Origin: Nitrososphaerota archaeon
Lineage (GTDB): Archaea; Thermoproteota; Nitrososphaeria; Nitrososphaerales; UBA183
Assembly (NCBI GenBank): GCA_027886865.1
Contig: JAPCJR010000002.1
Location: 89,795 to 153,794 of the forward strand
Length of the DNA: 64,000 nt
Reading direction: 5' to 3'
The translations under genes were made by a program, and so were the position numbers. Under the pieces are notes generated by a model. The model searched no databases, was not told the DNA's origin, and saw only the letters and a list, made by a program, of their open reading frames with translations. Below are positions 19,366 to 62,174 of the stretch, one piece after another. Each line of letters starts with the position of its first letter. The first letter of the stretch is position 1.

Positions 19366-19895
19366 TCTGAGACCCCACTTCGAGGGCCTCGGGGTTTGTA
19401 AAGATGACCTATGCGACTGATACGGGAAAGTTCCCTTCGAGAGATAGCGCGGCACGATGTATATGGCCGCGCATAAAGCCTAAAAGAAGCAAGAATTCAA
19501 TGACGAAAGACGATGAGGTTAACGCCGTCCCAGTCTTAGCCCTGGATAGCTCCAAGGGCAGATGAAGAACTCGCGACGATACTGAGTCAAATAAAACAAG
19601 CAGAGCCGAGTTGGGCATCCTTCTCGGCGCTCAGCTTGTAAGACTTGCATGTCCTGGTAAATCAGACAGACGCCTCTTCCGGCATTTCTCACCCTGCTTG
19701 CTCTGCGCTCCGGATTCCTTGGAGTTCCCTTGCACAGTTCCTTCGCTTCTCTCACAATGGACGCATTCCGAAGCCTGGCAGGGACTTCGAAAGCGGAGAA
19801 GGCTTCACAGAAATCCTCGGCGAGATTACATTCCCTCCGCTCGACAGAGTCGATAATCCGAAAGTATTCAAGCGACCGCGCAGACGACCACAAGA
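19366..19895. other. 530-bp intergenic stretch without a convincing gene
   Basis: This is the only gap above 300 bases. Base composition is clearly less GC-rich than the flanking genes. It holds no ORF with recognisable domains; a 124-codon minus-strand frame (19519-19893) has no family features. A hairpin with GCCGAG arms lies at 19605-19628. A TATA-like AAAGTATTC near 19862-19870 may serve the small RHH gene at 19896. A non-coding RNA is possible but not supported by any recognised motif. Confidence 0.5.
19605..19628. other. Short inverted repeat (hairpin candidate)
   Basis: GCCGAG at 19605-19610 and CTCGGC at 19623-19628 form a 6-bp stem with a 12-base loop in the intergenic stretch. No poly-T follows, so a terminator role is not obvious. 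Confidence 0.3.
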
Positions 19896-36530: not shown

Positions 36531-37294
36531 CAGCGGCGCGGATAACGTCCAAGGCGTTCTTCGAGCCCAACCCGAAGGACCCGATCCTGGTGTGCGGGAT
36601 GCCAGGGAGCGGCTACGTCGGGAAGCTCGCCGTGGACCACCTTGTCGAGGCGTTCAAGGGGAAAAAGTTCACGAAAGCATGGTCGGGCGAGTTCCCTCCC
36701 CAGGGAAATGTGGGCGAGGACGGTGTCGTGAATGCCATCAGCGGAGAGTTCTACATGTGCGAGACCGGGCAGGAGCGGGACCTTCTGGTGTTCACCGCGG
36801 ACGCCCAGCCGGCGACGACCAACGGAGAGTATGAGCTCTCCGAATGGGTACTCCAGCTCGCGAAGAGATATGGCGCCAAGCTCGTGTTCTCCCTTGCAGC
36901 GTACATCACGGGCGCGTTCACGGCCGAACAGAGGGTGTTCGGTGCTGCCACGTCGCCGGAGCTGACCTCCAGGATGAGCGACGAGGGGGTGAAGATAATG
37001 AAGGAGGGCGCGATCAGCGGGATGAACGGCATCATCATCGGGATGGCCAAGTTCCACGGTATGGAAGGCGCCTCCTTGCTCGGGGAGACCTCGGGCTACC
37101 TCGTGGACCCGGTGGCTTCCGAGGCAGTGCTCGACGCATTCTCGCGAACGCTGAAGCTCACCGTCGACCTGGCCAGCCTCAGGGACAAGGCGAAGGAGGC
37201 GAAGCAGGTTATCGGACAGATCCAGAAGATGAGCGAGCAGGAGAGCGGTGCCCGCGGTGGGAACCCGACCGGACAGCCCGGCTACATCGGTTAA
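36527..37294 (+). CDS. PAC2-family proteasome assembly chaperone-like protein
   Basis: A 255-residue PAC2 (COG2047/1938 type) protein: PILVCGMPGSGYVGKLAVDH at the N-terminus, VFTADAQPATTNGEYE, GAKLVFSLAAYITG and SGMNGIIIGMAKFHGMEG. Archaeal PbaA/PbaB relatives bind proteasome components. Two proteasome beta subunits are in the window, though not adjacent. The stop codon shares TTAA with the convergent rtcB. Confidence 0.85.
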   Translation: MTAARITSKAFFEPNPKDPILVCGMPGSGYVGKLAVDHLVEAFKGKKFTKAWSGEFPPQGNVGEDGVVNAISGEFYMCETGQERDLLVFTADAQPATTNGEYELSEWVLQLAKRYGAKLVFSLAAYITGAFTAEQRVFGAATSPELTSRMSDEGVKIMKEGAISGMNGIIIGMAKFHGMEGASLLGETSGYLVDPVASEAVLDAFSRTLKLTVDLASLRDKAKEAKQVIGQIQKMSEQESGARGGNPTGQPGYIG

Positions 37295-40245
37295 CCTTTG
37301 ATGTTACCGATCGGCCTCAGCGCGGCGACCTTCTTCGATATGCCGGCGCGGTCCATCGTGTCGACGACCTCGGAGATGTCCTTGTACGCCATCCCAGCCT
37401 CCTCTGCCAGTCCGTCGTACGTCGCGGCCTTGACGTAGATCCCTCTCTTCTCCATGCTCTTCTGGAGCTCGCCGCCGTTCACCTGTTTCTTTGCGGCGGT
37501 GCGAGACATGGTCCGTCCCGACCCGTGCGCAGTTGAGCCGAACGTCTCGGTCATCGCCTTGGCGGTACCGAGGAGGAGGTACGAGCCGGTCTCCATGGAA
37601 CCTCCGATTATGACGGGCTGCCCGATTGCTCTGTAGGGGGCGGGTATGTCGCGGTGCCCGGGGCCGAAGCTCCTGGTGGCGCCCTTCCTGTGCACGACGA
37701 GGTCCTTGCTCGAGCCGTCAAGCTCCTGCCTCTCCACCTTCGCGATGTTGTGGCAGACGTCGTAGATGATGTGCATGTCGAGGGCCTCGGCGTCCTCGTG
37801 GAAGACCGTCTTGAAGGCCTCCCTGACCCGGTGGACTATGACCTGCCTGTTCGCGAAAGCCATGTTGGCCGCGCATACCATCGCTCCATAGTAGTCCGTG
37901 CCCTCCTTCGATGAGAACGGCGCGCAGGAGAGCTCCCTATCCTTGACCGTGATTCCGTAGCGCTTCATCGCGCCATCGAAGATGCGCAGATAGTCGGAGC
38001 CGATCTGGTGCCCGAACCCTCTGCTTCCGCAGTGTATCATGATGACGACCTGGTCGTCGTGGACCAGCCCGAAGTGCTTCCCGGTTTCAGCGTCGAAGAA
38101 CCGGCTAGGGTCGATGACCTGGATCTCGAGATAGTGGTTGCCTGAGCCGAGGGTCCCCAGCTGGCTGATACCCCTGCTCGACGCCTGCCTGCTCACCTTC
38201 GTGGGGTCTGCGCCCTTGAGGAACCCACCCTCCTCGACCATGTCAGCATCGTCGCTCCATCCGTAACCGTTCTCTCCGCACCACTTGACGCCCCAGCGCA
38301 TCACCTCCTCGAACTGGCTCTGGTTCACGCGGACGGTGCCCTTTACCCCCACGCCGGTCGGGACCAGGCGGAAGAGAAGGTCGACGAGCTCCTTTACCTT
38401 CGGCTTGACCTCCTTAATACGCAGATTCGTCCGTATGAGCCGCATTCCGCAATTGGAGACGACGATACCATCAGCGATAAAGTTGTGATCCCGATGGTCT
38501 AACGACAGGTCGTAGACAAAGCCTGCATACGGAACCTCATCGATTGTGATTATCTGGCCAAGTGCGAACCCGCCGCGGCCATACTCTCTGTGTCCCGAAA
38601 ATTCTTCGAATCGTTCCACGTCCCAGACGCGCGCTTTCCCTCTCGGTGACCATATCGAGTGCTTGATGAAACTCTCTCCTACATACTTGCTTTTCAGCGC
38701 TGAGACTATCTGCGAAGGCGCGGCGCCGGCTGCGTACATCTGAGAGGCTTCGTTTCTCGCGTTGTTGCGTTCCACCCTTATGGCGGCAAGGAAGTCGATG
38801 TAAAGAGACGCGAGCGAAGCCAGCCTTTCCTTTTCCAAATTGTATAGATATCCTACTTGCGAGAAGAACTTCTTCATATTCGCCTCGCCCGCATCTATTG
38901 CGAGCCGGAACCCTATAGTCTGCCCGTCAACCCCGTCGTATCTGTAGCCTTCGACCGGCACGGGCTCGGCCGCCTCAACTCCGAAGCAGAAGAGTAACTC
39001 CCTGATGTCACGGAGGAAGATGATTGCGCTTTCTTGAATCGCAACAAGCTTGCTCTGACTGAATGAGAGAGTATCGAAATTGAAGCCGTTGTTGGTCCTC
39101 GGCTTCCCAAGCTCAGCGGCCAAGAAAGAGGCCAGAAACAGTCGCTTCTGCCACTTGGGCGCCTTCATAACGAAAGACGGAACCCTGTAAGGGGATGCTG
39201 TCTTCTTGCCATAGGGACCACCGAGAGCGACCACTAGGACGCAGAAGCTGGTCGAGTTGACCGCCAAGCTGAACTCTTTGAAGTCAAAATCCGAAATTCC
39301 GTACCCCGTCTCGAAGTGGTGGTGACGGTCACGCTCGTGAAGAGATGCCTGGAATCCAAGGGCCTCGACGTCTTCCTTCATCGATGCGAGGTCTTCCTTA
39401 CGGCCGTAGAAGGTCGTGTATTTTCCTCCCTTGGTCCGGGGTATAGTAGCGTCTCCGAAGATTTGGCCGAGAAGCTTCAAAAGACGAGGGAGGCTCGGGC
39501 TGTCGTAGAAGACGGAGTCAAGCTTCAGCTCTCTGAGATGCTTCATTGTTTGTCCTCGTGCGTTTCCCCGGTCTGTTATCTTCATCTCGTCCATTGCGCG
39601 TTGCAGGTCGGCCTCCTGAACAATTGGCTCATGAGCGGCTGAAGCGAATTCCACGCCTGAGAAGCCGGTGATTACTATTGAGTCAGTTTGGGTGAGTGCA
39701 CCTGCCAAGACCATTCCTCTTGCCGTTAGCACGGGGTGGTCCTTGGTGACCTTGATTTCATTATTCAAGTCGGTCCTAATTCTGATGAGGGATCCCTCTT
39801 CTCTTCTCCGCATGAACAGCAGAGTGCCAGCGGAGACAGCCTTCTTGCTTGCGAAATCGAGCGACATCACGTACCGACCGCGTCCCAGATCCTCTATCTT
39901 ATGCCAGGCCCCGTTAGCGTCCAGCACGCGAGCGTCGGGGTGAAGGCAATTTATGTCGAAGCCTATACCGCCAGGCGAAATCACACCCTTTTCAGGGTCG
40001 AACGCCGCGACTCCGCCGATGGGGAATCCATAGCCCCAGTGAGCGTCCGCCATCGCGTACGAGTAGCGCTCTATCCCGGGAAGCGCCGCGACGTTGGTAA
40101 CCTGCTCGAACACCCCCTGGTCCATACCCTCCAGGAGCTTTTTGGTCGCGTAGATGCGCGCGGGGACGTTCATTCCTTCCTTGTAGCTGGTGGGTATCTC
40201 CCACACGACGTCTGAGATCTGCTTGGTACTAGGAGGGACGGGCAT
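37291..40245 (-). CDS. rtcB: RNA-splicing ligase RtcB, interrupted by an intein
   Basis: GTP/Mn-dependent ligase that joins 2',3'-cyclic-phosphate or 3'-phosphate RNA ends to 5'-OH ends; the archaeal tRNA exon ligase. The precursor is 984 residues; after removal of the 499-residue intein the ligase is 485, the normal size. N-extein: ADAHWGYGFPIGG and GGIGFDIN. C-extein: CGMRLI, GTLGSGNHYLE, HCGSRGFGHQ, the guanylylated His in TAHGSGRTMSR. The Mn-binding Cys is the +1 residue of the C-extein, so activity requires splicing. ATG at 40245 gives the usual start; longer reading overlaps archease. Confidence 0.96.
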   Translation of the reverse strand: MPVPPSTKQISDVVWEIPTSYKEGMNVPARIYATKKLLEGMDQGVFEQVTNVAALPGIERYSYAMADAHWGYGFPIGGVAAFDPEKGVISPGGIGFDINCLHPDARVLDANGAWHKIEDLGRGRYVMSLDFASKKAVSAGTLLFMRRREEGSLIRIRTDLNNEIKVTKDHPVLTARGMVLAGALTQTDSIVITGFSGVEFASAAHEPIVQEADLQRAMDEMKITDRGNARGQTMKHLRELKLDSVFYDSPSLPRLLKLLGQIFGDATIPRTKGGKYTTFYGRKEDLASMKEDVEALGFQASLHERDRHHHFETGYGISDFDFKEFSLAVNSTSFCVLVVALGGPYGKKTASPYRVPSFVMKAPKWQKRLFLASFLAAELGKPRTNNGFNFDTLSFSQSKLVAIQESAIIFLRDIRELLFCFGVEAAEPVPVEGYRYDGVDGQTIGFRLAIDAGEANMKKFFSQVGYLYNLEKERLASLASLYIDFLAAIRVERNNARNEASQMYAAGAAPSQIVSALKSKYVGESFIKHSIWSPRGKARVWDVERFEEFSGHREYGRGGFALGQIITIDEVPYAGFVYDLSLDHRDHNFIADGIVVSNCGMRLIRTNLRIKEVKPKVKELVDLLFRLVPTGVGVKGTVRVNQSQFEEVMRWGVKWCGENGYGWSDDADMVEEGGFLKGADPTKVSRQASSRGISQLGTLGSGNHYLEIQVIDPSRFFDAETGKHFGLVHDDQVVIMIHCGSRGFGHQIGSDYLRIFDGAMKRYGITVKDRELSCAPFSSKEGTDYYGAMVCAANMAFANRQVIVHRVREAFKTVFHEDAEALDMHIIYDVCHNIAKVERQELDGSSKDLVVHRKGATRSFGPGHRDIPAPYRAIGQPVIIGGSMETGSYLLLGTAKAMTETFGSTAHGSGRTMSRTAAKKQVNGGELQKSMEKRGIYVKAATYDGLAEEAGMAYKDISEVVDTMDRAGISKKVAALRPIGNIKG
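38452..39948 (-). mobile_element. Intein in RtcB with a partly degraded LAGLIDADG domain (499 residues)
   Basis: The intein begins with Cys (CLHPDARVLDANG), has block B VTKDHPVLT near residue 67, and ends FIADGIVVSN, followed by the extein Cys. The penultimate residue is Ser, not the usual His. Insertion is exactly at the metal-binding FDIN/CG site of RtcB. A DOD endonuclease region is present: LLGQIFGDATI near residue 160 keeps the acidic residue, while the second motif, FLASFLAAELG near 271, has Ala where Asp is expected. Splicing should work; cleavage activity is doubtful. GC content is lower than in the exteins. Confidence 0.94.
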
Positions 40246-40310
40246 CTGGAATAACCGGATTAATCCGTCTCGCGAATCCGCAAGAGAGTTTAAGTGTTTG
40301 TCAGCGTCGT

Positions 40311-40742
40311 TCAGATATCTAGGACGACCGTCGCCACCCAACGCCCCTTCTCCTGCGTGACTCCGAACATGTGCATCGTCACGGCCTTGACATCGTTCCG
40401 GAGCTTGTGCCTCTCACGGTCTATCGGCTCTCCGCTGAGTTCGCAGACGAGGCTCCTGCCATCCCGCGCCACTTTGGCGTCGAACTTCTTGAATAGCAAA
40501 GAGTCGACGTCCTTGATCACTATCAGCTCCGTGAGGAAGTCGTAGAGGAGCCCATCGAGGCCTTCTGCCTTGACCGCGATCTCCTTCTTCACCGTGCCGC
40601 GCAGGCTCCTCCGGTCGACCATCACATCCGTCAGGGCTCCCGCGCTGACCTCGAAGAGCGCGCTCCGCGAGGAGGCCCCGACCTTGAAGGCGACGTCCGC
40701 CAACGCGACGTTCGGGAGGAAACGGTAGCTCGACCTTTGCAA
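40311..40742 (-). CDS. Archease, RtcB activator
   Basis: A 143-residue archease that speeds guanylylation and turnover of RtcB. It has YRFLPNVALADVAFKV in place of the usual YxFLPHTADV (the His is replaced by Asn), ALFEVSAGALTDVMVD and the C-terminal metal-site region VKAVTMHMFGV. TTG at 40742, about 30 bases from the TATA element. It is directly upstream of rtcB on the same strand, with a 65-bp gap. Confidence 0.9.
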   Translation of the reverse strand: MQRSSYRFLPNVALADVAFKVGASSRSALFEVSAGALTDVMVDRRSLRGTVKKEIAVKAEGLDGLLYDFLTELIVIKDVDSLLFKKFDAKVARDGRSLVCELSGEPIDRERHKLRNDVKAVTMHMFGVTQEKGRWVATVVLDI

Positions 40743-54245: not shown

Positions 54246-55415
54246 ATGGAAAAAATTGAGGGGGGGAATCCCGCCGTCCTTGTTCTGGAGGATGGTTCTC
54301 TTTTCGTCGGGAAGGGTTTTGGTGCAGAAACGACCAGCATAGCCGAGGTCGTCTTCACCACAGGCATGGTAGGCTATCCCGAGTCCATGACGGACCCATC
54401 CTTCGCAGGGCAGCTGCTCTGTTTCACGTATCCGCTGATCGGCAACTACGGGGTCTCGAGCATGAAGGACCTCGACTCTATGGGGCTGCCCAAGCAGTTC
54501 GAATCGGAGTCCATCAAGGTCAGCGGGATAATCGTCCAAGAGTGGTGCGAGAGGCCCAGCCACTGGGCCTCGGTCCAGAACGTCTCCGAATGGATGAGCA
54601 GCGAGGGCATCCCGGGGATCAGCGATATCGATACGCGGGCGCTCGTCTCAAAGATCCGGGAGAGCGGCGTCATGATGGGGGTCCTGGCGAGCGGGGCCGG
54701 CCTCACGAACAGGAGGGGGCTGATGAAGACCCTGAAGGAATCCACGCGGTATGATTCGATCGACTTTGTCAGGCGCGTCTCTCCGAAGAAGGCGCAGGTC
54801 TACGGGACTTCGGACAAGACGGTGGTCCTAATGGACTGCGGGTCCAAGTTCAGCATCATGCGGAACCTGCTCAAGCGCGGCTACAGCGTGGTGAGGGCGC
54901 CGTTCGACTACGGCTACTCCGACATCATGAAACACGACCCGGTGGGGGTGGTGGTCAGCAACGGGCCCGGAGACCCTCAGCTGTGCGGTGAGACGATAAA
55001 GGCCACGGCCAGGCTGATAGACTCCGAGATGCCCATCCTCGGCATATGCCTCGGGAACCAGCTCGTCGGCCTCTCGCAGGGAGCCGAGACGTACAAGCTC
55101 AAGTACGGTCACCGTGGTCAGAACAAGCCGGTCGTCGACCTGATCACGGGAAGGGGCTACGTCACAAGCCAGAACCACGGCTATTCGGTCGCCCGCGAGA
55201 CGCTGGCGAAGACGGAGCTGCGACCGTGGTTCATGAACGCAGACGACGACAGCATAGAGGGGCTCGTGCACCAGAAGAAGCCCTGCATCGCGGTGCAGTT
55301 CCACCCGGAGGCGTCTCCCGGGCCATACGATACCGAGTTCGTGTTCGACCGGTTCGCATCCCTCATCGAGACGGGAAGAATGGTAGGTGAAAAAGTTCGA
55401 AGCATGAAAGTGTGA
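54246..55415 (+). CDS. carA: Carbamoyl-phosphate synthase small (glutaminase) subunit
   Basis: Class I glutamine amidotransferase subunit of 389 residues. N-terminal domain starts AVLVLEDGSLFVGKGFG; the amidotransferase domain has SNGPGDPQ, the nucleophile Cys in ILGICLGNQL and QFHPEASPG with the catalytic His and Glu. It feeds ammonia to CarB. The carB GTG overlaps its last codons (55412). Confidence 0.96.
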   Translation: MEKIEGGNPAVLVLEDGSLFVGKGFGAETTSIAEVVFTTGMVGYPESMTDPSFAGQLLCFTYPLIGNYGVSSMKDLDSMGLPKQFESESIKVSGIIVQEWCERPSHWASVQNVSEWMSSEGIPGISDIDTRALVSKIRESGVMMGVLASGAGLTNRRGLMKTLKESTRYDSIDFVRRVSPKKAQVYGTSDKTVVLMDCGSKFSIMRNLLKRGYSVVRAPFDYGYSDIMKHDPVGVVVSNGPGDPQLCGETIKATARLIDSEMPILGICLGNQLVGLSQGAETYKLKYGHRGQNKPVVDLITGRGYVTSQNHGYSVARETLAKTELRPWFMNADDDSIEGLVHQKKPCIAVQFHPEASPGPYDTEFVFDRFASLIETGRMVGEKVRSMKV

Positions 55416-58400
55416 AGAAAGCGATAGTGCTGGGAAGCGGGGCAATCAAGATCGGAGAAGCCGGCGAAAGCTGCTAACGCAGCCGCCAATTCGACTACTC
55501 CGGCAGCCAGTGCCTCAAGGCGCTCAAGGAGGAGGGCGTGCAGTCGGTCCTTGTCAACCCCAACATCGCCACGATACAGACGGACAGGAGGATCGCGGAC
55601 AAGATTTACTTCCTGCCCGTCAACCCGGACTTTGTCACTGAGATAATAGAGAAGGAGAGGCCGGACGCCATACTCCTGGGCTTCGGCGGCCAGACGGCGC
55701 TGAACTGCGGCGTCGGGCTGGGCAGGAAGGGGGTCCTCGAAAAGTACGGTGTGAAGGTCCTCGGGACGCAGATCCACGGGATAGAGATCACGGAGGACAG
55801 AGAGCTCTTCAAGGAGACGATGCTCGACGTGGGCGTCTCCGTCCCCAGGAGCAAGCCGGCGTACTCGCTGGAGGAGGCGAGGCAGGTCTCCAAGGAGATC
55901 GGCTACCCGGTGATAATCAGGGTGGCGTACACGCTGGGAGGCAGAGGAGGCGGGGTGGCCAAGAACGAGAAGGAGCTCTCGGAGATAGTCCAGCGCGGGC
56001 TGAACCTGAGCATCGCCGGCCAGGTCCTGATAGAGGAGTACATCGGCCACTGGAAGCAGATTGAGTACGAGGTGATGAGAGACGGGGACGACAACGGGCA
56101 GGTCGTCTGCAACATGGAGAACGTGCTCAGCATGAGGGTCCACACGGGCGACAACATAGTCGTGGCGCCCTCCCAGACAATCACCAACCGGGAGTATCAC
56201 ATGCTGAGGTCCCTGGCCCTGAAGGCCGCGAGGAGGTGCGAGATAGTGGGCGAGTGCAACATACAGTTCGCCCTGGAACCCACCTCCGAGCGGTACAACG
56301 CGATAGAGATCAACGCGAGGCTCTCGAGGTCGTCCGCCCTCGCGTCGAAGGCCACTGGGTATCCCATCGCGTACATCGCCGCGAAGATATGCCTGGGATA
56401 CTCGCTCACCGAGCTGAAGAACAAGGTGACGGGCGTGACGAGCGCCCTCTTCGAGCCTTCGCTAGACTATGTGGTGGTCAAGATGCCGAGGTGGGACACC
56501 AAGAAGTTCGAAGGCGCGTCGAGGAACATCGGGACCGCGATGAAGTCCATCGGCGAGGTGATGGCGATAGGGAGGAACTTCGAGGAGTCCGTCCAGAAAG
56601 CGGCCAGGATGCTCAACATCAGGTACGACGGCGCCATCAGGCGGTTCGTGGAGACCGACGACCTTGATGTCATCAGGGAAAGGCTAAGGAACCCCACCGA
56701 CCAGATAATCTTCGACGTCGTCGAGGCGCTCATGGTAGGGATGCCAGAGGACGAGGTGAGCAGGCTCAGCATCATCGACCCGTGGTTCGTAAGCAAGTTC
56801 AAGAATATCGTGGACATGTACAAGCGGATATCCCAGACGGGCAAGGACGGCCTCGAAAGGGACCCCTCGCTAGTCCGGGAGGCGAAGAAGCTCGGCTTCT
56901 CGGACAAGCAGGTCGCGGCCGCCGTCGGGATGGACGAAGAGCACGCCAGGGCGATGCGGGAGCGGATGGGGATCGCGCCCCACACCAAGACCATCGACAC
57001 CCTCGCGGCAGAGTGGCCGGCCAAGACCAACTACCTGTACATGACCTACAACGGGTCCGAGGAGGAGGCCAAGCCCACCAAGGCGAAGAAGGTGCTGGTG
57101 CTGGGAGCGGGGCCCTACAGGATCGGCAGTTCGGTCGAGTTCGACTGGGGGACGATGAACATGGCCTGGGCGCTCAAGGCGAACGGCGTCGGGGAGGTGA
57201 TCGTGGTCAACTGCAACCCGGAGACCGTCTCGACCGACTTCGACATGAGCGACAGGCTCTACTTCGAGGAGCTCACCGTCGAGAGGATCCTCAACATCTA
57301 TGAGAAGGAGAAGCCGCTCGGGGTGGTCCTCTGCGTGGGGGGCCAGATACCGAACGACCTCGCCCTCGAGCTCGACCAGAACGGGGTCAGCATCCTCGGG
57401 ACCAGCGCCGACTCCATCGAGCGTGCCGAGGACAGGGAAAGGTTCAGCTTCCTGCTGGAGAACCTCGGGATCCCCCAGCCCAAGTGGGGGAGCTTCAGGT
57501 CCACGAAGAAGGCGCGCGACTTCTGCGACGAGGTCGGCTATCCCGTCATAGTACGCCCGTCGCACGTGCTGAGCGGTTCGGCCATGAGGGTGATATGGGG
57601 CAGCGCGGAGCTGGACACCTTCCTGGTGAAGGCGGCGGAGGTCAACCCCAACTACCCCGTGACGGTCAGCAAGTTCCTCGAGAACGCGAGGGAGGTCGAG
57701 GTGGACGCCATCTCTGACGGCGAGACCACGGTCATAGGCGCGATCATGGAACACGTCGAGAACGCGGGCGTCCATTCGGGCGACGCGATAATGACCATAC
57801 CGACGATAACGATAAGCGCAGCGGCGAAGGAGAAGATGAGGGAGTACACCAGGGCGATCGCGCGCGAGCTCGGAGCCAAGGGCCCCCTGAACGTCCAGTA
57901 CCTTGTCATCGGAGACGAGGTCCAGGTGATAGAGTGCAACCTGCGGGCCTCGCGCTCGATGCCGTTCGTCTCCAAGACGACCGGGATGAACCTCATCGAG
58001 CTGGTCGCCCCCGTCCTGCTGGGCGGAAAGTTGACCGGCCTCAAGGACGGCCCGGAGCCTACCACGTTCGCCGTGAAGGCGCCCCAGTTCTCGTTCATGC
58101 AGATGGAGGGCGCCGCACCCACCGTTGGGGTCGAGATGCGCTCCACCGGAGAGGTGGCCGCCTTCGGGAACACCCTCGCGGAGGCGATGAGCAGGGCCCT
58201 GATGGCATCGGGCATCCGCATACCGCAGAAGGGCGAGACGGGGATAATCCTCGCCGACGAGAAGTCGGACCTCAAGGAGATGCGCGCGCTGCTGAAGGAC
58301 TTCGGCACCGTGGGCATCACCTTCGTCACCACGCAGGCGCTTGCCGGCGCTCTGGGCGCGGGCGCTGCGAAGGTGGCGACCATAGAGGAGATGGTCGAAA

Positions 58401-58582
58401 TGGTCTCGAAGGGACAGGTCTCGTTCGTGATATCGCTAAACACCAACCTGAACAAGTTGCGTAAAGACCTCTACAAGGTCAGGAGGAAGGCGGTGGAGCT
58501 CCAGGTGCCGTTCCTCACGACACTGGAAGAGGGAGAGGCGATACTCCTGTGTGTCCAGTCGCCCCTGACCAGCCTCAGCTAG
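55412..58582 (+). CDS. carB: Carbamoyl-phosphate synthase large subunit, split by a 21-nt candidate intron
   Basis: Makes carbamoyl phosphate for arginine and pyrimidines. Starting at GTG 55412, four bases inside carA, the frame reads MKKAIVLGSGAIKIGEAGE, then Ser-Cys-stop (TAA 55475-55477), three more codons and Gln, and then FDYSGSQCLKALKEEGV. Homologues read GEAGEFDYSG without interruption, so exactly 21 bases (55469-55489) are extra. Removing them gives 1049 residues, the usual length, with both ATP-grasp halves (GGRGGGVAKNEKE; second half VLGAGPYRIGSSVEFDWG) and the C-terminal MGS-like domain intact. The rest shows no decay. Without removal, the first Rossmann strand would be lost. Confidence 0.9.
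55469..55489 (+). other. Candidate 21-nt bulge-helix-bulge pre-mRNA intron in carB
   Basis: GGCG (55463-55466) pairs with CGCC (55484-55487) as the 4-bp central helix. The 5' bulge is AAA (55467-55469) and the 3' bulge AAT (55488-55490), each three bases. The inner helix is GCTGC (55470-55474) with GCAGC (55479-55483), closed by a TAAC loop that holds the stop codon. Cutting after the second base of each bulge removes 55469-55489 and joins GAA to TTC. A contiguous outer helix is lacking; a distal CGGAG/CTCCG pair (55453-55457, 55498-55502) may replace it. This matches the relaxed substrate of the archaeal splicing endonuclease. Confidence 0.8.
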
Positions 58583-59850: not shown

Positions 59851-62151
59851 TCACTTGCCCTTCAGTGCGGCCAGCTCCGCAAGCATGGCAGTAAGCTGTA
59901 TCTCTGGGCTCGCTCCCAGAATGAGCCTATAGTCATATTCCGCTACTATCTTGATGGCGTCAGCCATACGCTCGCCGCCGCTCGAGACCACTGCCTCGTT
60001 CGCAAAGCGCAGGAAATCCGTCTCCGGTATACCGTAGACGCGGGTGAGCTCGACGAGCTTGATGCGCGCCGCGCTGAAGTCTCCGTCGAGGGCGAGCCTG
60101 ATTATCTCGGCGGCCCTCTCCTTGACAGTGGCGCCCGTGACCTTCTCCACTCGTTCGAGCGTCACCTCTCCGCCCGCCGACGCCGCCTGGAGGAGGTTTA
60201 TCGCCTGGCGGAGGTCTCCGCCGGTGGTCTCGTACATCGCCTCGAGGACCTTCTCGGTGACCTTCACGCCCTCTGATTTGGCTATCTTCTTCAGAGAGCC
60301 TGAGACCTGCTCCGCAGCAACCCTCTGGAACCTGAAGATGGCGCACCTGCTCTGGATGGGCTCGATTATGCTGGAGGAGTAGTTGCAGATCAGGATGAAC
60401 CTCGTGAACCTCGAGCTCTCCTCCATGATCCTCCTGAGAGCGGTCTGCGCGTCGCGCGTATTGTGTGTAAGGATGCCGTTACCTAGTAAGAAATTTTGGT
60501 TGTTCCCGACTGCTATGTTCAACACCCTCGCTTTCCGCTCTTGTACCACTGATCTAACGCGTGCGTGCAGGATTTTTTGTGCTGGGCCCCCCGAAATGCC
60601 GACTGTGTGGAATATCCTCGGCAGTACTGAATCGCTGATGATTTTCTCATCTCCCAGCTCGTGCTCCCAGACCACCACTACTCTGTACCCTAGAGATTCG
60701 AGCTCCTTCACGTGGCGATAGTCTTTCTCCAGATTCCTCTTTTGCTTCTCGTACTTTGCCTGAACTCCGCATGTCGGACAGACGTGCCACCAACAGCCGT
60801 TCACTAGCAGGGCGATCTTGTTTCCGATGACGAAATCGATGGCAAACGGGTACTTGTTTCCTTTCTGATTCGTGACGATAAGACGTTCGCGTTGGTAGGG
60901 AATCTTCCAGGATTCGAGGAGCTGCGCCATTTTTTGCTCGGTCTTGCTTCTGAATCCGTGGTCCTTCCAGTATTGCACCGAAGCCAAGTACGCTCGCTTG
61001 CTGGCTTGTTTGAAGAAGCCGTCCTTCACGAGTTTTCTATATCGCCCGTCTGGATTCGCCAGTGACTTCTTCACCTTGGCTGCCATTGGCGCCTTCATCT
61101 CTGGATGCTGCGCGAAGTAACGCGCGCCGCCTCTCCCTATCGCCTCCTTGTGCTCCTTCGTGAGTCTCTTCCCTAGCCATGCGCCTTCTCCCTTCTTGTA
61201 CTTGGCCCATGTCTTCGGGTTTGGAATCCGACCCTCGTCTATCAGTTTGAGCGCGATTTGAGAGCGTTTGTTTCTGTACTCTTTGGACTGGTACGTACCC
61301 CGTCTCGCGAGACTGTCCGCTCCACTCAGTCCAATACGATGCCTTTCCTCCGGTGTTCTTTGAGCTGAGATCGCTCCGAAGAAGGAATTTCTGCATCGAT
61401 TGGAGCAGAAGTGGTGTTGGTACTTCCCATATTCATGTGGTCTGTAGAATGGTCTGCTGCAGCTATAGCAGCGCATGACCTTGTTTGAAAAGTCCGCAAG
61501 TTCGGAACCGGGTCTTAGCTCACGCGTCCTGAGCACCTTCACGCTGCGTCCCTCTATGACGAAGAAAGGATGTTCGGCAGAGGCCAGGACGCTCCTTCCG
61601 TCTTCAAAAGTGACTCTGTAGAGATTGGCAGTGCCAGACTGTACTATGTGTCCGGTATCATCTTCAAGACGCATACCCCTTGAGCTGAACGAGGGAAGGT
61701 CGAAGCAACCGTCACCGTGGGTTTCCAGGAGTTCCTGCAGAGTTGCTTCTTTAAGGTCATCCAGCTTGCCCACGAGAACCCTTGTCTCGGGATCGAGACA
61801 CATTTCGTCGGCTTCGTCGAGTATCACGAGTCTGAACGGCACACCCTCCCTTCTGTCTGAGTAGCTCGCAAAGACCTTGACCCTCTCCCTGACCGTGTCG
61901 ATCCCCCTCTCGTCGCTCGCATTGAGCGAGAGCGTATAGTCGGACTTGAGGTCTCCGAGCAGCTGCTCCGCCACTATGTGCGCGAGAGTGGTCTTACCAG
62001 AGCCGGGCGGCCCAGCGAAGAGGAGGTGCGGCATCTCCTGGGGCTTCTCAAGCAGAGGCGCCAACCTTTCCTTGACTTCGGTCTGATTAATGACGTCCTC
62101 TAACTTGTGCGGCCTGTACTTCTCCACCCACATCAGGCTCTCGAGAGGCAT
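59851..62151 (-). CDS. rfcS: Replication factor C small subunit, interrupted by an intein
   Basis: Clamp-loader AAA+ subunit that loads PCNA. The precursor has 766 residues; the mature protein has 319, as normal. N-extein: WVEKYRPHKLEDVI (RFC box), GPPGSGKTTLAH (Walker A), ILDEADEM (Walker B). C-extein: TRDAQTALRRIMEESSRF, ICNYSSSIIEPIQSRC with the Arg finger, and the collar domain. ATG at 62151 lies 28 bases after a TATA-like box; a GTG at 62157 is also open. The interruption is inside Walker B/sensor region, where other archaeal RFC inteins also occur. Confidence 0.96.
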   Translation of the reverse strand: MPLESLMWVEKYRPHKLEDVINQTEVKERLAPLLEKPQEMPHLLFAGPPGSGKTTLAHIVAEQLLGDLKSDYTLSLNASDERGIDTVRERVKVFASYSDRREGVPFRLVILDEADEMCLDPETRVLVGKLDDLKEATLQELLETHGDGCFDLPSFSSRGMRLEDDTGHIVQSGTANLYRVTFEDGRSVLASAEHPFFVIEGRSVKVLRTRELRPGSELADFSNKVMRCYSCSRPFYRPHEYGKYQHHFCSNRCRNSFFGAISAQRTPEERHRIGLSGADSLARRGTYQSKEYRNKRSQIALKLIDEGRIPNPKTWAKYKKGEGAWLGKRLTKEHKEAIGRGGARYFAQHPEMKAPMAAKVKKSLANPDGRYRKLVKDGFFKQASKRAYLASVQYWKDHGFRSKTEQKMAQLLESWKIPYQRERLIVTNQKGNKYPFAIDFVIGNKIALLVNGCWWHVCPTCGVQAKYEKQKRNLEKDYRHVKELESLGYRVVVVWEHELGDEKIISDSVLPRIFHTVGISGGPAQKILHARVRSVVQERKARVLNIAVGNNQNFLLGNGILTHNTRDAQTALRRIMEESSRFTRFILICNYSSSIIEPIQSRCAIFRFQRVAAEQVSGSLKKIAKSEGVKVTEKVLEAMYETTGGDLRQAINLLQAASAGGEVTLERVEKVTGATVKERAAEIIRLALDGDFSAARIKLVELTRVYGIPETDFLRFANEAVVSSGGERMADAIKIVAEYDYRLILGASPEIQLTAMLAELAALKGK
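60460..61800 (-). mobile_element. Intein in RfcS carrying a Vsr-like nuclease (447 residues)
   Basis: Starts CLDPETRVLVGKLDD, block B is LASAEHPFFVIEG near residue 72, and it ends FLLGNGILTHN before extein Thr. Between the splicing blocks lies a zinc finger (CYSC near 111, FCSNRC near 131), a NUMOD3-like basic region (RLTKEHKEAIGRGG near 212) and, at about residues 285-385, a Vsr-like nuclease: SKTEQKM, FAIDFVIGNK, LLVNGCWWHVCPTC and VVVVWEHEL. No LAGLIDADG motif is visible. All splicing residues (Cys1, HN, +1 Thr) are present. Base composition is lower in GC than the exteins. Confidence 0.92.
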
Positions 62152-62174
62152 CAGCACACGTATCCGCGGAGCGG

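What the first reader, a model, noticed from the sequence alone, without database searches (positions are those of the whole stretch)
55463..55490. Very small (21-nt) bulge-helix-bulge intron inside carB
Seen directly: carB has an in-frame TAA at codon 22, in a stretch where homologues have the unbroken GEAGEFDYSG. The surplus is exactly 21 bases. These bases and their flanks form a 4-bp helix (GGCG/CGCC), two 3-nt bulges (AAA, AAT) and a 5-bp inner stem with a 4-nt loop. Cutting both bulges after their second base and joining restores the conserved peptide at a codon boundary. The rest of the 1049-residue protein shows no decay, so a dead gene is unlikely. Protein-coding BHB introns are established for cbf5 and a few other archaeal genes; I know of none in carB or this short.
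Basis: partly seen in the sequence, partly recalled or inferred. Interest (0 to 1): 0.95.

Follow-up and report, generated by a model that had tools for sequence, protein, structure and literature searches.

The report
Ancient mini-intron in archaeal carB genes
A 21-base stretch with a stop codon interrupts the carB gene (pyrimidine and arginine synthesis) of an archaeon and is likely cut out of its mRNA by the enzymes that splice tRNAs; about half of the sampled genomes of its relatives' class carry an insert at the same spot, with matching changes on both sides of the same folded stem, which would make this an old mRNA intron of a kind that a 2020 paper knew from one other archaeal gene.

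Summary
The 21 bases at 55469-55489 contain an in-frame TAA and fit a GGCG/CGCC helix between two 3-nt bulges; removing them restores a 1049-residue CarB. Comparison strongly supports the intron reading. Of 79 readable carB sites (window plus 78 of 80 related loci), 53 carry an insert at exactly this codon boundary and 26 are empty. Among 82 distinct inserts (20-34 nt), all 37 whose length is a multiple of three contain an in-frame stop; the other 45 shift the frame. The inner stem covaries. Exon codons that pair in the model are near-fixed only where an insert is present. The gene is under purifying selection (dN/dS 0.06 against L001). Twelve of 12 relatives searched encode EndA and RtcB; the window itself encodes RtcB. 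A covariance model finds the insert in 205 of 400 genomes of the class; genomes reached only by a phylum sample gave no intron-like hit. It is not unprecedentedly short: cbf5 introns are 16-44 bp (PMC2738675). Splicing itself is inferred; no RNA data were available. Ten paper searches showed no report of it.

The parts
54246..55415 (+). carA (carbamoyl-phosphate synthase small subunit); its last 4 bases overlap the carB start
   Evidence: ORF; Pfam CPSase_sm_chain and GATase
55412..55468 (+). carB exon 1, GTG start, 19 codons ending GGC GAA
   Evidence: read directly; same frame in relatives
55469..55489 (+). 21-nt intron AGCTGCTAACGCAGCCGCCAA (predicted to be spliced out)
   Evidence: covariance model hit 81.3 bits (the window is one of the model's own sequences)
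55475..55477 (+). in-frame TAA (codon 22) in the intron loop
   Evidence: read directly
55463..55466 (+). central helix, 5' (exon) strand GGCG
   Evidence: GGC codon in 94 of 96 distinct insert-bearing sites against 3 of 23 distinct empty sites
55484..55487 (+). central helix, 3' (intron) strand CGCC
   Evidence: one C-G to U-A double change (L021)
55467..55469 (+). bulge 1 (AA|A), predicted 5' cut after 55468
   Evidence: BHB geometry; exact bond inferred
55488..55490 (+). bulge 2 (AA|T), predicted 3' cut after 55489
   Evidence: BHB geometry; exact bond inferred
55470..55474 (+). inner stem, 5' strand GCTGC
   Evidence: covaries
55479..55483 (+). inner stem, 3' strand GCAGC
   Evidence: covaries
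55452..55461 (+). exonic outer stem, 5' side (TCGGAG . AGC)
   Evidence: 9 of 9 pairs standard in 38 of 38 distinct sequences; GGA 94 of 96 against 4 of 23 empty
55493..55503 (+). exonic outer stem, 3' side
   Evidence: GAC, TAC and TCC codons enriched in insert-bearing sites
55490..58582 (+). carB exon 2 with stop codon
   Evidence: Pfam CPSase_L_D1, D2, D3; dN/dS 0.060 against L001
55538..55540 (+). internal GTG where the mechanical ORF of CarB starts (1014 aa)
   Evidence: database entries truncated in the same way, such as P0001
37291..40341 (-). RtcB RNA ligase (predicted to join the exons), itself interrupted by an intein
   Evidence: tblastn; Pfam RtcB 544.7 bits and Intein_splicing; NCBIfam NF038162 1089.1 bits, under its cut-off of 1150

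Best explanation
The 21 bases are predicted to be a bulge-helix-bulge mRNA intron that the tRNA-splicing endonuclease EndA would cut out of the carAB transcript and whose exons the ligase RtcB would join, giving a full-length 1049-residue CarB. Shown by sequence: the insert, its stop codon, the restored frame, the same-site inserts and empty sites in relatives, the covarying stem, the near-fixed exon codons, EndA and RtcB genes in 12 of 12 relatives searched, and RtcB in the window. Inferred: that the RNA is cut after the second base of each bulge, that RtcB seals it, and that the intron arose once within the class Nitrososphaeria and was later lost several times. A message that keeps the intron would end about 20 codons into carB, so splicing is probably needed for any CarB to be made.
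For: Same codon boundary in 53 of 79 sites, empty in 26. 82 distinct introns of 20-34 nt: 37 of 37 multiple-of-three ones hold an in-frame stop, the other 45 shift frame; in the 53 loci the unspliced frame stops 13-40 codons after the start of the GSG motif, while the spliced frame runs 1024-1079 residues from that motif. Covariation: 51 double-change cells against 15.5 +/- 5.5 in shuffles (0 of 500 as high); 96.9% of cells paired against 17-52% when slid by 1-3 columns; an alignment anchored on the splice sites gives 814 of 864 cells paired for 96 distinct sites, 94.2% against a shuffled mean of 84.1%. Codons in the outer and central helices: GGA 94/96 against 4/23 empty, GGC 94/96 against 3/23, TCC 76/96 against 5/23 (not corrected for kinship). 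Purifying selection, dN/dS 0.060 against L001. Eleven of 12 relatives searched have one CarB match at E <= 1e-60; G010 has two adjacent pieces. EndA and RtcB in 12 of 12 relatives, EndA hits numbering two or more in 9; in G001 (genome of L001) one EndA is closest to 3p1z/3ajv (recalled as Aeropyrum pernix) and keeps Tyr, His and Lys (recalled as catalytic), the other lacks the His. RtcB in the window. Model R1 finds the intron in 205 of 400 class genomes at E <= 1e-11; the 119 strong hits whose sequence I took all lie at the carB site.
Against: No cDNA, RNA-seq or peptide was examined. The 101-nt fold is not unusually stable (z -0.30). One covariation measure does not exceed shuffles (further pair types 15 against 15.7; 482 of 500 as high), and the count of pairs with double changes is reached by 8 of 500. 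The fourth central pair fails in 10 of 38 distinct sequences (G.A) and the last inner pair in 11 of 38. The outer helix is broken by an A.A mismatch and unpaired bases, so the strict canonical BHB is not met. The exact cut bond is ambiguous, since a shift by one or two bases can give the same codon. EndA was not found in the window by tblastn (best E 0.41), whose genome is not held. Three of 12 relatives (G005, G008, G012) showed one EndA gene only; incomplete MAGs are possible.
Confidence: 0.93

Rival explanations
1. The insert stays in the mRNA and CarB starts downstream of it (for example GTG 55538), so exon 1 and the insert are a leader and CarB is about 35 residues shorter.
For: Gene callers annotate exactly this: P0001, P0002 and others start downstream. 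In 26 of 79 genes no ATG, GTG or TTG stands 4-40 codons before the GSG motif of exon 1.
Against: Exon 1 encodes GSG[AG]IK[IV]GEAGE in line with the rest in all 78 readable related loci, with synonymous variation (the pattern searched for asks for these residues, but only the two contig-edge loci failed it); in 26 it is fused to the rest without insert. Missing standard start codons occur in empty-site genes too (10 of the 26), so they do not track the insert.
Confidence: 0.03
2. The ribosome skips the insert (programmed translational bypass) without any RNA cleavage.
For: A hairpin between take-off and landing sites with a stop codon inside is a feature of known bypass elements (recalled).
Against: The last three bases of the insert (CAA, CAG, CAT, AAA, AAG, TAA, TAG or TAT) do not repeat the take-off codon GAA/GAG, as known bypass sites would ask (recalled). 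What is kept is what a BHB needs: the central helix and the 3-nt bulges.
Confidence: 0.02
3. Pseudogene, assembly error or sequencing artefact.
For: Single window from an unnamed record; no genome held for it.
Against: 52 other loci, among them records named as strains such as Candidatus Nitrosotenuis chungbukensis MY2 (L054), carry an insert at the same place; dN/dS 0.060 and 1049 intact residues.
Confidence: 0.01

Closest known systems
BHB intron of cbf5 pre-mRNA in Desulfurococcales and Sulfolobales (Watanabe 2002, cited only; Yokobori 2009, PMC2738675)
   Same: Short intron (16-44 bp) in a protein-coding gene, relaxed BHB in most, cuts predicted between the second and third bulge base, lineages with the intron absent; cut by hetero-oligomeric EndA (section 8 of PMC2738675 read).
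   Different: Different gene (carB, a metabolic enzyme) and class (Nitrososphaeria). Splicing of cbf5 was seen as cDNA; this one is predicted. [quoted passage not shown] all 82 distinct ones here break the frame or hold a stop.
Archaeal tRNA introns cut by EndA
   Same: BHB-type recognition, size range (11-175 nt, PMC2738675), same enzymes predicted.
   Different: In an mRNA, with an outer stem made of codons.
HVO_1309 mRNA of Haloferax volcanii, cut by EndA (PMC7714728, passages seen)
   Same: An mRNA substrate of the splicing endonuclease.
   Different: BHB sites in a 5' UTR, not an intron in a reading frame.

Membership tests
Archaeal BHB introns in protein-coding genes | Removal restores a conserved, uninterrupted protein | tested here: met
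   Joined CarB 1049 aa without stop; 26 empty-site relatives show the same junction
Archaeal BHB introns in protein-coding genes | Two 3-nt bulges on opposite strands flanking a 4-bp helix | tested here: met
   Met in the window; in 10 of 38 distinct sequences the fourth pair is G.A, so relaxed there
Archaeal BHB introns in protein-coding genes | Perfect outer helix next to the bulge (strict form) | tested here: not met
   Outer stem imperfect, with mismatch and unpaired bases. Most cbf5 introns of PMC2738675 also have an unconventional BHB, so this bears on strictness, not on membership
Archaeal BHB introns in protein-coding genes | Structure kept by compensatory changes across relatives | tested here: met
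   5 pairs with double changes (8 of 500 shuffles reach this), 51 double-change cells (0 of 500)
Archaeal BHB introns in protein-coding genes | Organism has EndA able to cut relaxed motifs, and a ligase | tested here: inconclusive
   EndA and RtcB genes in 12 of 12 relatives, two or more EndA hits in 9; RtcB but no EndA in the 64-kb window; activity untested. PMC4090602 lists Thaumarchaeota as alpha2beta2 (passages seen)
Archaeal BHB introns in protein-coding genes | Spliced mRNA observed | not testable with these tools
   No RNA data on hand

The most novel reading that the evidence does not exclude
The carB intron is a class-wide splicing gate: every distinct intron seen keeps a stop or a frameshift, so CarB, unlike CarA in the same operon, is made only after EndA and RtcB act, and splicing sets the supply of CarB for pyrimidines and arginine in ammonia-oxidising and related archaea.
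Probability: 0.15. Interest if true: 0.93.

Novelty: new member of a known kind. Interest (0 to 1): 0.86.

Why it matters
A 2020 paper (PMC7714728, passage seen) states that cbf5 was the only further archaeal BHB intron reported in an mRNA. A second gene, in a largely moderate-temperature class that includes abundant ammonia oxidisers (recalled), would show that tRNA-type mRNA splicing is neither confined to hyperthermophiles nor a one-off, and that such an intron can persist through a class in a metabolic gene. It gives a natural series of presence, empty site, varying length and compensatory change for studying how mRNA introns are kept and lost without a spliceosome. It also means that public CarB records of these archaea often miss the true N-terminus.

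Tried and rejected
Whole genome of the window: not held, so EndA and other introns could not be sought in it; tblastn found RtcB but no EndA in the 64 kb. No tRNA and no Rfam family at gathering score in the window. Folding energy as evidence: rejected, z -0.30. Second window hit of model R1, 19789-19841, 10.5 bits, E 0.99: taken as chance. G608 hit outside the class sample: no carB motif in its 3049-base locus, taken as chance. The 22 weak class hits (E 8.7e-4 to 1.4e-7) were not counted as introns; the 5 of them that the phylum output lists are 36 nt long, the length of the empty site; the other 17 were not looked at. Length as a novelty: rejected.

Literature: ten paper searches. No listed title or abstract start named a carB intron; some searches listed 20 of 711, 15 of 179 and 20 of 34 papers. 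The two papers were opened by passages and do not concern it. The library holds only open-licence PMC papers.

Rows left out: the genome scan kept 80 of 266 relatives. L004 and L006 have no readable site (contigs begin downstream). Alignment A1 used the 38 distinct sequences (-21 to +15 around the insert) of the 53 insert-bearing sites. The 96 distinct sites and 82 introns come from 172 insert-bearing sites, which include second fetches of loci already held (L111 is the genome of L001).

Full report
Observation. carB in the window starts at GTG 55412, overlapping the end of carA, and is broken at codon 22 by TAA inside a 21-base insert, 55469-55489. Removing it gives an open CarB of 1049 residues. 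The described helix, bulges, inner stem and loop are all there. With the exons fixed and the insert shuffled, the nine pairs form in 4 of 200,000 trials. Fold energy alone is not remarkable (z -0.30).

Relatives. A scan of GTDB genomes found 266 CarB relatives and kept the best 80, nearly all titled as Thaumarchaeota or their genera, Nitrososphaeria groups or unnamed archaea (L017 is titled bacterium); the closest is 90% identical (L001), next Candidatus Gagatemarchaeum stordalenia (L002, 85%). The site is readable in 78 of the 80 and in the window: 53 of 79 have an insert of 20-30 nt between the same Glu and Phe codons, 26 have none. With further genomes, 82 distinct introns were collected, 20-34 nt long: 37 of 37 multiple-of-three ones contain an in-frame stop, 45 shift the frame. 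In the 53 loci the unspliced frame ends 13-40 codons after the start of the GSG motif; the spliced one runs 1024-1079 residues from that motif. So none of them can be translated through into CarB. Among the 26 empty genes one (L016) is shorter, 925 residues.

Structure. In 38 distinct aligned sequences the 18-pair structure holds in 96.9% of cells; double changes occur in 51 cells against a shuffled mean of 15.5 (0 of 500 as high), and sliding the partners lowers pairing to 17-52%. Not every measure stands out: pairs with a double change are 5 against 3.4 (8 of 500 as high) and further pair types 15 against 15.7 (482 of 500). The inner stem carries most covariation (UA/CG/UG, CG/UA, AU/GC/CG); the central helix has one C-G to U-A change (L021). 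An alignment anchored on the splice sites, over 96 distinct sites, gives 94.2% paired against a shuffled mean of 84.1% (maximum 86.0%). Failures there: fourth central pair 12 of 96 (G.A), fourth inner pair 5 of 96, fifth inner pair 33 of 96. The outer stem is exonic and imperfect. Its codons, and the GGC of the central helix, are near-fixed only in insert-bearing genes: GGA 94/96 against 4/23, GGC 94/96 against 3/23, GAC 89/96 against 11/23, TAC 94/96 against 14/23, TCC 76/96 against 5/23. These tests ignore kinship, but the coding need is the same in both sets, so the RNA appears to be constrained.

Gene and enzymes. CarB of the window against L001: dS 0.90, dN 0.054, ratio 0.060. Eleven of twelve relatives searched have one CarB match at E <= 1e-60, and G010 has two adjacent pieces. 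EndA and RtcB occur in 12 of 12. Nine of the twelve have two or more EndA hits; in G001 one protein keeps the Tyr, His and Lys positions (recalled assignment) and is closest to 3p1z/3ajv, the other lacks the His, as expected of an alpha/beta pair. PMC4090602 (passages seen) lists Thaumarchaeota with alpha2beta2 enzymes, and PMC2738675 ties relaxed motifs to such enzymes. The window itself encodes RtcB at 37291-40341 on the - strand, interrupted by an intein; no EndA was found in the 64 kb.

Distribution and history. Model R1 finds the intron at E <= 1e-11 in 205 of 400 genomes sampled from the class of G001; 22 more have weak hits, 5 of which are listed and are 36 nt long, the length of the empty site. 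I took the sequence of 119 strong hits and all 119 lie at the carB site. In a phylum sample of 398 genomes 47 have strong hits, and all 47 were already in the class sample; 14 newly reached genomes have weak hits only, 13 of 36 nt and one chance match. On a quick tree of 79 CarB proteins (SH-aLRT support only) the presence label needs 6 changes, at least 5 forced by well-supported branches. Rooted on L022 and L025 this reads as one gain and five losses, but the root is assumed and two long rows (L020, L021) are placed unsurely. The 26 empty sites join the same two codons without remnant.

Databases. Of the 120 database CarB proteins listed, 17 contain the joined junction, 2 (P0050, P0058) run through the intron in a wrong frame, and 101 lack the junction; the first of these start downstream (P0001, 1014 aa; P0002, 1011 aa). 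Some may be cut by contig ends or come from intron-less genes. P0007, 1050 aa and 82% identical, is full length and may be a recent loss; its DNA was not seen.

What is known. cbf5 is the described case of a BHB mRNA intron (PMC2738675, section 8 read; PMC7714728, passages seen: 'only one example'). cbf5 introns are 16-44 bp. Ten paper searches showed no carB intron. The mechanism is therefore a known kind in a new gene and class; splicing remains predicted until seen on RNA.

Noticed in passing
window 37291-40341 (-): RtcB, the predicted ligase for this intron, is itself interrupted by an intein, so the RNA-splicing ligase would depend on protein splicing. NCBIfam has a model for intein-containing RtcB, so the combination is known; the hit is 1089 bits, below its cut-off of 1150.
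   Followed up: partly
L007, L008, L012, L023, L024, L031, L050, L051, L073, L079 and others, just upstream of the carB GSG motif: In 26 of 79 carB genes no in-frame ATG, GTG or TTG lies 4-40 codons before the GSG motif; codons such as GTA or CTG stand at the expected place near the carA stop. It occurs in intron-bearing (16) and empty (10) genes, so carB may use non-standard start codons, perhaps by coupling to carA.
   Followed up: partly
window 59851-62157 (-): Replication factor C small subunit carries an intein (Pfam Intein_splicing).
   Followed up: no
G005:C24:168906-171719: RtcB is hit in two pieces (1-50 and 49-426) about 1.5 kb apart within one 1007-codon open frame, as an intein would give.
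   Followed up: no
L031 and L032; G368 (C82, C148) and G169 (C10, C35): Identical CarB proteins in MAGs titled as two genera, and two carB introns on separate contigs of one genome, point to mixed bins.
   Followed up: no
P0050, P0058 (protein database entries): Predicted CarB N-termini that read the intron in a wrong frame (MGQSRSEKQAKAGRTSRKFDYSG...): annotation errors caused by the intron.
   Followed up: partly
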